64,000 nucleotides of DNA from Chrysoperla carnea (taxonomy: Eukaryota > Arthropoda > Insecta > Neuroptera > Chrysopidae), in assembly GCF_905475395.1 (NCBI RefSeq), contig NC_058337.1, positions 139,011,172 through 139,075,171 on the forward strand. The letters are read 5' to 3'. The position numbers were made by a program, and so were the translations under genes. Below, one piece after another: positions 15,939 through 24,451 of this stretch (position 1 is its first letter; each line of letters opens with the position of its first letter). The notes under the pieces were generated by a model. That model was not told the origin of the DNA and did not search any database. It saw only the letters and a list, made by a program, of their open reading frames with translations.

Positions 15939-18023
15939 GTGAATATACCACATAACACACAAAAACACAACAATAATCAAACATCCCTACAGCACATAGG
16001 TAATCTATCCTATCACAAAGACAAAAGTGCCACTAGTTATGATAGTGTTAATTCCTTAACTACTCATAATAATCATTATACTTTACTATATCCTGATTTA
16101 GTGCAGGAATTACTTAATTTTCATAATAGCAACAGTGTAAAAAATAATTCACCCTTCTTAAGGAATATAGGTGTAAATAATACAAAATATTCATCTTTAG
16201 ACTCTTCATTGTCAGCTCGAGACATATTATTTTTCTTACAGATTGTTTCACTATATCAGCTAGAACTTCGTAAAGGTAATGCTTCTATTGTTTATTCTTC
16301 AGAAAAACTCTCCAGTCTTCTTGGTTATAATGCTCAAGAAAAAAGCAATATGCGTAGCACTAGCTTAAAGCTAATTATAAATCTTGAACAGTTAGGATTA
16401 GTCTATGTTATCAGAAGCAAAAACAGTAAAGGTGCAGATGAAGTAAACGAGATGATACCAATATTGTCTGACCCTCTATATGAAAAAATCAAATATGCAG
16501 CATCTAATTTTAATATAGATAGCAGAAGACTTGATAATGAATCTAATATTCAGCATATTTTGCGTACTAAGTTATTTACTCCTATAGATCTAGAGTCTAT
16601 GAAAAGCTTATTTGACGATGTTAATATGTCAAATACACAAAAGCTTTTTCACCTAAACTGCATTATTACTGCTTATCAAAATTATCAAACTACAGGTTTG
16701 ATTATCTTTTTCTACTACTGCACAAGAATTAATTAGTACAAATAATGTAAGTAAGCGTACGCTTGCTAGAATACTTGACTACATTAAAAATCAATATCCT
16801 AATTACTTCATAGAAGTAAATCATACTTATGCTTAGTCAGATGATATTGATTCTAACCGCTATGATAGATCTACTTTTATCATATCTATTAACCCTATTG
16901 TTATTCCTAAAGCTTTCCTTAACAAGAACAATTGCGAAGTAAAAGCAAAAGTAGAATATAGGAATATTGATAATTCATCTTTAGTTTCAGATAATGAAAC
17001 TGAAAAACCTGATACTTATAGGGGTTTTCAGGCGGAAGTGCCAAAAAAGCATCCCATAATAATAAAGATATAATAATAAAGAATAAGTATTATAAAAATA
17101 TAGACTATATAGATGAAAATTATGATGATTTTAAAAATTCATCTGTAACTTGTTCAAGTTTTTCTTCTGCATCAGAAGAAAACTACAAAGAAGAGTTTTT
17201 TTGAAGACAAGCAAGGCTTGTCTTCATCTAAATCTTATAAAAATTCTTCTTTTTTGAATGATTCTAGTAATAGAAACAGCGGAAAAATATCTGAGAAGAA
17301 GGAAGAATGGCAAGACTTCAGATATTTCTACCCAATATCAGAGAAAGACTCAAATATGCTCAACTTTAAAGCGCATAGAGAATTTGATACTAACTTCACA
17401 AACCAGTTATTGTTAAAGCTCTATATCAAATATCCTGAGAAGAGATTTAAGAACAAATTTACCTTTTCAGACTACATGGTCAAAGCATTAAAGAAAGAGA
17501 AACATCAAGGACCACTTGTAAATAATCCAACATTTAGATTTAGCTGTAACATAGGAAAAGAAGAGAAGAACCTACTTGAATAGAAAAGATATCTAAGCCA
17601 AATAGAAAATTCTTTTGACACCAGCAAAGAGATGTGTGTCAAGAAGAAGATAGCAGGGAGATTTAGTAGCGAGGTAGCATACAAGATACTGACTGGTATT
17701 GAATTTAAGCTAAACCCTGATAATAGCTTTATACCTGCATTAATTCCAAGCAGTTTAGCTTTAAGAGAGAGACAAACAGAAATCTTAAGCGATCAGTTAG
17801 AAGCAGTATATGGCATTAATGGTTATTATATACAGGAATTAGAAGCGGCAGAAAAGCTACTAACTCCAGAATTTAAAACAGAGAATAAAAACTCTATTAA
17901 AACATCCATTAGTTTTGCAGAGCCAAGTAATGGCAAAGAAACAACCGAAGAACACTCAGTATGGCATCAAATAAGGAAAGGCTTGAGTGAAGAGTTAGGG
18001 GAGGCGATAGAGGGGGTTTGGTT
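15939..18023 (+). pseudogene. Rickettsia-plasmid DnaA-like replication protein, 5' part
   Basis: The N-terminal frame (15939-16736) has a winged-helix-like segment (ARDILFFLQIVSLYQLELRK, SSEKLSSLLGYNAQEK). It continues out of frame past about 16700, meets a TAG near 16834 and further breaks, then resumes as 17218-17583, a TAG at 17581-17583, and 17632-18023. The last part (WHQIRKGLSEELGEAIEGVW) is the start of a DnaA N-terminal domain. Rickettsia plasmids encode such DnaA_N-containing replication proteins next to parA, as here. The gene is cut at 18023 by an LTR retrotransposon and continues at 24452. It is a pseudogene from several point lesions in addition to the insertion. Confidence 0.7.
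18020..18023. repeat. Target-site duplication GGTT, left copy
   Basis: GGTT immediately precedes the left LTR (TGTTCCG...). The same four bases follow the right LTR at 24448-24451. Removing the element and one GGTT joins the two bacterial pieces in the same reading frame (TGG TT|C TCT AAA). Confidence 0.9.
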
Positions 18024-18919
18024 TGTTCCGTAATTTATGTCGGTTAAAGTACATAAATTACGAACAAACATATTATATAAAGTTATGGAACTACTTTCTT
18101 ATGCGCAATGATTGATGCGCGAATTAATTTACCTACTCGTTTGAGTATTGATGAGGAGCTCTCTTCTTTTTGGGATCTCCTAGAGTATGGATTGAATTTA
18201 AAATATCAACAATGATGGATCCTAGATCCAATATAACCTTTAAATTATTTTGCACGTGATGTATTTTAAAACGATATGTGAGCAAGCAGAAGTATTTTTA
18301 TTCAAAATGATCTGGTAATGTTTAATTTATTTATATTTTTATGCATCCATTTAAACTCTGATATAAATTTATTTAAGGTTTCTTGACTAATATGTCGTAG
18401 TATTTATTAATCTTTATTTGTAAAACACTTTAAATTTTGTGTATTTACTAAATATTTGATTTTGTTATTCAGTAAACACTTAAAGTGTTAAATTTAGGAT
18501 ACTGTACCAATTTTGTAATTAATTATGATTTACATAAAATATCTTTCAAGTTTATATTATCTTTGATATTGTTTAACTCTTTCCTTCTGAAATTTTGTTT
18601 TGTAGGTGTGAAATTTAAATCCATGCGGTAAATTTTGGAAAGGTAAAGAAATGAAGCCTTTACTTGAACATCAAACATTTCATCCAGTTCTGATCTAAAA
18701 ACCTCTGGACCTGTCAGTTTAAATATCAGGGTGGCTTTAAATAGTACAATTATCCCGGAAACTGTATGGGTGGGCCCTTGCACACTTTTAACTCGTACTC
18801 TAAATCTTTTCTTAACTTCGTAACTCGTAACTTGTAAATCTTAATTTTGATATTCTTATTTTCATTTTCTAATAACCCCATAATGGGTTACTTTTCTTCC
18901 TTTTCTTCTTTTTGCTTCA
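18024..18919 (+). repeat. Left long terminal repeat
   Basis: This 896-bp repeat matches 23553-24447 at a constant offset of 5529 for almost its full length. The first differences I found lie in the last 40 bases (ccataatggg against ccataaggg). An 86-codon minus-strand frame (18523-18783) is the same in both LTRs and is not considered a gene. Confidence 0.92.
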
Positions 18920-23552: not shown

Positions 23553-24447
23553 TGTTCCGTAATTTATGTCGGTTAAAGTACATAAATTACGAACAAACAT
23601 ATTATATAAAGTTATGGAACTACTTTCTTATGCGCAATGATTGATGCGCGAATTAATTTACCTACTCGTTTGAGTATTGATGAGGAGCTCTCTTCTTTTT
23701 GGGATCTCCTAGAGTATGGATTGAATTTAAAATATCAACAATGATGGATCCTAGATCCAATATAACCTTTAAATTATTTTGCACGTGATGTATTTTAAAA
23801 CGATATGTGAGCAAGCAGAAGTATTTTTATTCAAAATGATCTGGTAATGTTTAATTTATTTATATTTTTATGCATCCATTTAAACTCTGATATAAATTTA
23901 TTTAAGGTTTCTTGACTAATATGTCGTAGTATTTATTAATCTTTATTTGTAAAACACTTTAAATTTTGTGTATTTACTAAATATTTGATTTTGTTATTCA
24001 GTAAACACTTAAAGTGTTAAATTTAGGATACTGTACCAATTTTGTAATTAATTATGATTTACATAAAATATCTTTCAAGTTTATATTATCTTTGATATTG
24101 TTTAACTCTTTCCTTCTGAAATTTTGTTTTGTAGGTGTGAAATTTAAATCCATGCGGTAAATTTTGGAAAGGTAAAGAAATGAAGCCTTTACTTGAACAT
24201 CAAACATTTCATCCAGTTCTGATCTAAAAACCTCTGGACCTGTCAGTTTAAATATCAGGGTGGCTTTAAATAGTACAATTATCCCGGAAACTGTATGGGT
24301 GGGCCCTTGCACACTTTTAACTCGTACTCTAAATCTTTTCTTAACTTCGTAACTCGTAACTTGTAAATCTTAATTTTGATATTCTTATTTTCATTTTCTA
24401 ATAACCCCATAAGGGTTACCTTTCCTTCTTTTTCTTTTTTTGCTTCA
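23553..24447 (+). repeat. Right long terminal repeat
   Basis: This 895-bp copy of 18024-18919 ends GCTTCA and is followed by the duplicated target GGTT (24448-24451) and the bacterial gene. It carries the same 86-codon minus-strand frame at 24052-24312. Confidence 0.92.
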
Positions 24448-24451
24448 GGTT

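What the first reader, a model, noticed from the sequence alone, without database searches (positions are those of the whole stretch)
18020..24451. LTR retrotransposon inserted in a Rickettsia-plasmid gene with a 4-bp target duplication
Seen directly: two near-identical 0.9-kb LTRs (TG...CA), GGTT on both sides, and the DnaA_N domain of a plasmid replication gene continuing in frame from 18023 to 24452 once the element and one GGTT are removed. Known: LTR integrases act in eukaryotic nuclei and make 4-6 bp duplications. Inference: the bacterial DNA lay in a eukaryotic chromosome when the element arrived, and assembly error cannot create such a junction. Near-identical LTRs mean the insertion is young.
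Basis: partly seen in the sequence, partly recalled or inferred. Interest (0 to 1): 0.95.

Follow-up and report, generated by a model that had tools for sequence, protein, structure and literature searches.

The report
Jumping gene inside Rickettsia-derived lacewing DNA
A lacewing chromosome carries a long stretch of decayed DNA from a Rickettsia bacterium, and one of the insect's own jumping genes has landed inside a bacterial gene there, which shows that the bacterial DNA really sits in the insect's nucleus.

Summary
A Ty3/gypsy-type LTR element (18024-24447; LTRs 896 and 895 bp) interrupts a rickettsial plasmid-type DnaA_N gene and is flanked by GGTT. The empty site is seen in natural relatives, without joining anything: two uninterrupted paralogues on the same chromosome carry GGTT once, where both flanks align, and four Rickettsia proteins split between adjacent residues at this point.

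The genome is Chrysoperla carnea, chromosome 1 (contig length equal to the published scaffold; a lacewing protein on such a contig). The LTR has 46 listed matches genome-wide. Five of five other insertions examined have 4-bp duplications. Longer relatives encode an open gypsy pol; the window copy has lost nearly all of it.

It is not the only host element there: a 21.6-kb palindromic one with its own target duplication ends at window 4358. Rickettsial DNA recurs over at least 0.95 Mb (8 of 15 point samples), with broken essential genes such as rpoB, and 264 kb hold no gap.

So this is a large nuclear Rickettsia transfer with host transposons in it. Wolbachia in Drosophila ananassae and, closer, Rickettsia in Curculio weevils are precedents. 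I found no report for lacewings.

The parts
18020..18023 (.). left target-site duplication GGTT
   Evidence: single GGTT at this place in L038 and L039
18024..18919 (+). 5' LTR, 896 bp, TG...CA
18920..18939 (+). candidate primer-binding site directly after the 5' LTR; the same bases follow the LTR in another full copy (L007). tRNA not identified
   Evidence: role inferred
18920..23552 (+). internal region of a non-autonomous gypsy derivative; about 1.5 kb is 83% identical to the stretch after pol in the relative L035
20258..20916 (+). two decayed, tandemly repeated remnants of pol (RNase H to integrase linker); no other pol match in the window at E 1e-3 apart from a short overlapping one
23546..23552 (+). 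purine-rich tract next to the 3' LTR (within TTGGGGAA), candidate polypurine tract, identical in L008
   Evidence: role inferred
23553..24447 (+). 3' LTR, 895 bp
24448..24451 (.). right target-site duplication GGTT
15939..18023 (+). 5' part of a rickettsial plasmid-type DnaA_N gene, broken by a frameshift near 16.7 kb, a further stop and a TAG at 17581-17583
24453..24605 (+). 3' part of the same gene (second half of the DnaA_N domain) and its stop codon
1..4358 (.). right end of a 21.6-kb palindromic host element (window -17284 to 4358) with terminal inverted repeats and a target duplication (TCCTTC if the inverted ends are read at full length); Maverick/Polinton-like by its ends only
   Evidence: dispersed relatives of the end
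4359..4537 (-). open frame of the bacterial flank cut by that element; a TraE-type conjugation gene lies on the other side in L011
   Evidence: not recognised by NCBIfam
12042..13031 (-). non-LTR-type reverse transcriptase fragment beside a Sca2-like autotransporter barrel gene (11125-11829)
   Evidence: host origin inferred, copy search not answered
14835..15677 (-). ParA-family ATPase
33801..36866 (+). relaxase-helicase of TraA (Ti) type, below the family cut-off
43930..44700 (-). truncated proS
48383..50611 (+). rickettsial lon, 96% identical to that of the Rickettsia endosymbiont of Gonocerus acuteangulatus, frame lost after residue 740
51195..54080 (+). bacterial group II intron matches
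56324..59034 (+). gyrA broken into four open frames
   Evidence: two of the four frames tested; the other two read by me; frames

Best explanation
A Rickettsia related to insect endosymbionts transferred a very large part of its genome, with plasmid or conjugative genes, into what is now the end region of chromosome 1 of Chrysoperla carnea (inferred from the sequence). The bacterial genes are decaying there. Host transposons of more than one kind have since inserted into this DNA. In the window, a non-autonomous Ty3/gypsy element was copied and inserted, most likely by reverse transcriptase and integrase supplied in trans by autonomous relatives. It cut both strands 4 bp apart inside a DnaA_N replication gene and left GGTT on both sides. 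Shown: element anatomy, family membership, target duplication, empty site, dispersed host copies, open pol in relatives, a second host element with its own duplication, broken essential bacterial genes, gap-free sequence. Inferred: trans-mobilisation, the number of transfers, the order of events.
For: Empty site in two paralogues and four proteins. LTR family on C1, C2, C3, C5, C6 and small contigs. Five of five other insertions with 4-bp duplications. Gypsy-type pol with RVT_1, RNase H, H2C2 and rve domains in a relative with LTRs 8.8 kb apart, pol remnants in the window copy. Host identity: C1 length 139,979,878 equals the published longest scaffold, and an NCBI entry names a low-quality lon protein of Chrysoperla carnea whose longest contig has that length. 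No N in 264 kb. Bacterial genes across the block. rpoB with an in-frame TAA, gyrA in four open frames, lon and proS truncated. Second host insertion.
Against: No raw reads or second individual were seen. I could not test whether the assembly also holds a live Rickettsia contig: the copy search with lon was sent and never answered. No single-copy host gene was shown on the same gap-free stretch; the host material identified is transposon DNA. The six LTR differences are clustered, so the LTR clock rests on the remaining identical bases. The 5' piece alone does not score as DnaA_N.
Confidence: 0.93

Rival explanations
1. Assembly artefact: a Rickettsia contig joined to host repeats or to the chromosome by mistake.
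For: The lacewing is known to carry Rickettsia (PMC7762206 and PMC5557424, seen only as search listings with the start of the abstract). The block is rich in repeats, and no raw reads were checked.
Against: A misjoin does not make a 4-bp duplication of the bacterial target with a complete element between, matched by empty sites, nor a second duplication 13.7 kb away around another element. No N in 264 kb. Essential genes are broken. The assembly was made from HiFi reads.
Confidence: 0.04
2. The host element inserted into a living Rickettsia's DNA inside an infected cell, and the bacterial plasmid with the element was transferred to the nucleus later or is still bacterial.
For: The junction alone does not exclude it.
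Against: Two kinds of host element are shown in the same block and a third is likely. The gene carries other disabling mutations, and rpoB and gyrA are broken. The block is contiguous with a named chromosome.
Confidence: 0.02
3. The block is not one transferred genome but the product of several separate transfers, perhaps with bacterial pieces copied around by Maverick-like elements.
For: Paralogous copies of the DnaA_N gene at 138.656 and 138.771 Mb are only 75-77% identical to the window's, as several plasmids would give in one or in several transfers. Bacterial and Maverick-like stretches alternate. Rickettsia-derived genes in Curculio are reported as embedded in Mavericks (PMC13419823, passages).
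Against: TraE, TraG and TraC genes stand near each other in L010-L011, as in one conjugation cluster. The only whole-genome search with bacterial DNA that was answered found its 3 places all on chromosome 1; other bacterial genes were not searched across the genome.
Confidence: 0.3

Closest known systems
Rickettsia-derived transferred DNA in Curculio weevils (preprint PMC13419823; abstract, outline and passages read)
   Same: Large amounts of Rickettsia-derived DNA in an insect nuclear genome, associated with Mavericks, many genes pseudogenised; LTR/Gypsy named among the expanded families
   Different: Different insect order; the words Chrysoperla, lacewing and Neuroptera do not occur in that text; here the bacterial DNA sampled lies in one region of one chromosome and one insertion is resolved to the base with empty sites
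Nuclear Wolbachia insert of Drosophila ananassae (PMC4299567; passages, and start of the abstract)
   Same: Large Rickettsiales insert in a chromosome with numerous host retrotransposons inside it
   Different: Wolbachia, not Rickettsia; that paper could not identify the insert's exact location by sequence because of the retrotransposons
Ty3/gypsy LTR retrotransposons
   Same: LTRs TG...CA, 4-bp target duplication, pol order RT to RNase H to integrase in the relative tested
   Different: The window copy has lost nearly all of pol and is non-autonomous
Rickettsia plasmid DnaA-like proteins (for example those of pRF, PMC1800911, passages)
   Same: DnaA_N domain; homologues named DnaA-like in Rickettsia, one from a plasmid record; ParA-family and TraA-type genes in the same window, as listed for pRF
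   Different: Broken here by small mutations and the insertion

Membership tests
Ty3/gypsy LTR retrotransposon | paired LTRs with TG...CA ends | tested here: met
Ty3/gypsy LTR retrotransposon | short target duplication of constant length in the family | tested here: met
   GGTT here; CACT, GTAT, AAAT, CTTT, ACAA in 5 of 5 other insertions
Ty3/gypsy LTR retrotransposon | pol with RT, RNase H and integrase in gypsy order | tested here: met
   met in relative L035 (L036 shows a very similar open frame, domains not run); not met in the window copy itself, which keeps remnants only
Ty3/gypsy LTR retrotransposon | primer-binding site and polypurine tract | tested here: inconclusive
   candidate stretches at the expected places, same in L007/L008; no tRNA matched
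nuclear transfer of symbiont DNA | bacterial DNA contiguous with host chromosome, no gap | tested here: met
   264 kb without N, mixed with host elements; raw reads not seen
nuclear transfer of symbiont DNA | host mobile elements inserted with target duplication and empty site | tested here: met
   LTR element: duplication and empty site; palindromic element: duplication only
nuclear transfer of symbiont DNA | decay of genes essential to a living bacterium | tested here: met
   rpoB stop, gyrA in four open frames, lon, proS
nuclear transfer of symbiont DNA | inherited in symbiont-free hosts | not testable with these tools
   needs animals
Maverick/Polinton (the element ending at window 4358) | terminal inverted repeats | tested here: met
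   20 of 20 terminal bases inverted-identical, 5.9 kb inverted ends at 99.85%
Maverick/Polinton (the element ending at window 4358) | 6-bp target duplication (length recalled) | tested here: inconclusive
   the shared string at the two edges is 8 bp, TTCCTTCA; it is 6 bp, TCCTTC, if the inverted ends are read at full length
Maverick/Polinton (the element ending at window 4358) | own polB, integrase, ATPase and capsid genes | tested here: not met
   18 open frames of 120 aa or more, copies of 5 kinds, the longest 244 aa; only 2 of the 5 kinds were run against Pfam, one RING match and one without match. Not filed as a member

The most novel reading that the evidence does not exclude
Most of a Rickettsia genome together with its plasmids sits as a block of about 1 Mb near the end of lacewing chromosome 1 and acts as a landing zone for Maverick-like and gypsy elements, a second and independent insect order with the Rickettsia plus Maverick pattern just proposed for weevils.
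Probability: 0.4. Interest if true: 0.78.

Novelty: new member of a known kind. Interest (0 to 1): 0.62.

Why it matters
It gives base-level evidence that bacterial DNA in a public insect chromosome is real and not contamination, by a test that needs no reads: a host element with its target duplication inside a bacterial gene, plus empty-site relatives. NCBI already lists a rickettsial lon as a lacewing protein. The block makes the idea that transferred bacterial DNA attracts or spreads with host transposons testable in a second insect order, and young LTRs can date the insertions.

Tried and rejected
Plasmid records (PLSDB) gave no DNA match for either flank, none for traA in near mode, and no protein match for the two gene pieces. 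The upstream gene piece had one distant plasmid hit. The best listed ParA hits were 28-40% identical. Genome-contig scans with ParA and with the upstream gene piece found nothing. A viral-contig scan found nothing. PDB comparison of the 3' piece gave only a weak DnaA match, E 0.26, and the 5' piece none. A split TraL gene at 4359 was suspected by position but not recognised, so I do not name it so. I first read the matches as stopping at the element's edge; the query itself ended there, so that was no test, and I dropped the claim. A search across the edge did not complete. I considered that the six LTR differences measure age; all six lie in the last 36 bases (chance about 4e-9 for independent, even mutation), so one event such as gene conversion or template switching is likelier. 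A live copy of the bacterium in the assembly, the copy number of the 12-kb reverse transcriptase and the genome-wide spread of rickettsial IS elements could not be tested.

Literature: ten searches of the held library. Judged by the titles and abstract starts listed, none reports Rickettsia DNA in the Chrysoperla nuclear genome; some searches had more hits than were listed, and most subscription papers are not held. PMC9894559, PMC11016177 and PMC13389597 were searched for passages and hold no mention of Chrysoperla.

Full report
What was checked. Exact limits are 18024-18919 for the 5' LTR, 23553-24447 for the 3' LTR, and 18020-18023 and 24448-24451 for GGTT. The LTRs are identical except for 6 substitutions, all C/T, and a one-base indel, all within the last 36 bases of the LTR.

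The empty site. A search of the own genome with the left flank found two paralogues on the same chromosome, at 138,770,881 (77%) and 138,656,335 (75%), and no other place. In both, the end of the left flank and the start of the right flank align so that the two GGTT copies fall on one GGTT (L038 2216-2219, L039 2177-2180). The alignments are far better than any other offset (41 and 43 of 60 against 28; 41 and 40 of 60 against 30 and 29). Both paralogues carry a clear DnaA_N domain (E 1.4e-15 and 4.7e-14). A search with L038 gave 37 proteins at E 1e-5; those that carry an organism name are Rickettsia, several named DnaA-like and one from a plasmid record. Four homologues chosen from those 37 align to the window with no residue lost or repeated between the two sides.

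The element. Its LTR has 46 listed matches in the genome, fragments included, on C1, C2, C3, C5, C6 and small contigs; only 40 of 150 candidates were scored, so this is a lower bound. Eight matches were cut as loci, two of them the window's own. The other six represent four solo LTRs and the two ends of one copy, 5 insertions, and 5 of 5 have a 4-bp duplication. That copy has identical LTRs (0 of 939). LTR pairs elsewhere start about 5-6 kb or 8.8 kb apart. Internal parts of two copies of the longer kind hold an open pol; that of L035 was tested and has RVT_1, RNase H, integrase zinc and rve domains. The window copy retains about 1.5 kb of 83% similarity and two decayed pol remnants. It is a deletion derivative that needs proteins from elsewhere (inferred).

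The host. Contig C1 is 139,979,878 bases, exactly the longest scaffold of the Chrysoperla carnea assembly inChrCarn1.1, which also has 337 scaffolds (PMC10116181, whole text read). One difference: G000 totals 559,487,470 bases against 560,248,701 in the paper. A protein search with the window's lon returned a Chrysoperla carnea protein whose longest contig has that length. The window is about 0.9 Mb from the end of chromosome 1.

The bacterial DNA. Lon is 96% identical over 739 residues to that of a Rickettsia endosymbiont of Gonocerus acuteangulatus and loses its frame after residue 740. The window also holds bacterial genes for proS (truncated), a serine/threonine dehydratase, gyrA (two of four frames tested), a TraA-type relaxase, a CBASS-like phospholipase and IS200, plus group II introns. 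Ten frames from the flanking stretches were run and match MutL, TraG, TraC, a ProP-type transporter, TrpS, UppS, IlvE, DapA, NrdB and TraE. Of 15 point samples, 8 read as bacterial (138.45, 138.56, 138.62, 138.70, 138.85, 138.90, 139.30, 139.40 Mb) and 7 as host elements (138.40, 138.50, 138.80, 139.25, 139.35, 139.50, chromosome end). NCBIfam matches back 138.56, 138.70, 138.85, 138.90 and 139.30, and sequence identity to the block backs 138.45, 138.62 and 139.40. The host samples are my reading of their frames; three of them (138.50, 138.80, 139.25) share sequence or frames with stretches seen, and the other four were not run against any library. rpoB at 138.85 Mb has an in-frame TAA between two pieces that abut in the family profile.

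Other host insertions in the block. A 21.6-kb unit from window -17284 to 4358 has inverted ends 99.85% identical over 5.9 kb and ends in exact 20-base inverted repeats. The string shared by its two edges is TTCCTTCA; read with the inverted ends at full length, the target duplication is TCCTTC. Relatives of its last 959 bases lie on C1 to C6 and two small contigs, 61 matches listed. The query ended at the element's edge, so where those relatives stop was not tested; the same goes for an empty site of this element. It resembles Mavericks by its ends, but it has no open frame over 244 aa. Maverick-like genes (rve, A32-type ATPase, phospholipase A2 domain) occur nearby, between bacterial stretches. 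A reverse transcriptase of non-LTR look lies beside a Sca2-like gene at 12 kb.

Age. Outside the last 36 bases the LTRs show 0 differences in about 859, an upper 95% bound of 0.0017 per site per lineage. With a mutation rate near 3e-9 per site per generation (recalled, not from a call) that is under about 0.6 million generations. The transfer itself must be older.

Position in the literature. Host retrotransposons inside nuclear Wolbachia DNA are known (PMC4299567, passages). A July 2026 preprint reports Rickettsia-derived DNA in three Curculio weevils, mostly embedded in Mavericks, with LTR/Gypsy among the expanded families (PMC13419823, abstract and passages). Small Rickettsia fragments are reported in Nesidiocoris (PMC8048687, passages). 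A lacewing Rickettsia with a 3.25-Mb chromosome and large plasmids has been sequenced from Mallada (PMC13375240, passages). I saw no report for Chrysoperla in the ten searches named in Tried and rejected.

Verdict. The insertion itself is an ordinary retrotransposon event; what is notable is where it lies. It is a new case of a known kind, of more than usual size and clarity.

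Noticed in passing
window -17284 to 4358 (chr1 138,993,887 to 139,015,529): A 21.6-kb palindromic host element with a target duplication (TCCTTC, or up to 8 bp) cuts a small bacterial frame near a TraE-type gene.
   Followed up: partly
window 12042-13031: A non-LTR-type reverse transcriptase fragment with an AAT-rich tail lies beside a Sca2-like autotransporter gene; probably a third kind of host element in the block.
   Followed up: partly
window 18884-18919 versus 24413-24447: All six LTR substitutions are C/T changes in the last 36 bases, while about 860 bases are identical; a single conversion or template-switch event is likely.
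   Followed up: partly
P0097, P0105: Two Lon proteins of Pseudolycoriella hygida on a 192.8-Mb contig are about 72% identical to the rickettsial one and rank among Tisiphia sequences; possibly another nuclear transfer.
   Followed up: no
L044:721-723: In-frame TAA in a bacterial rpoB at chr1 138.85 Mb.
   Followed up: yes
window 25019-26116: Patatin-like phospholipase similar to CBASS effectors (below the family cut-off) next to the interrupted gene.
   Followed up: no
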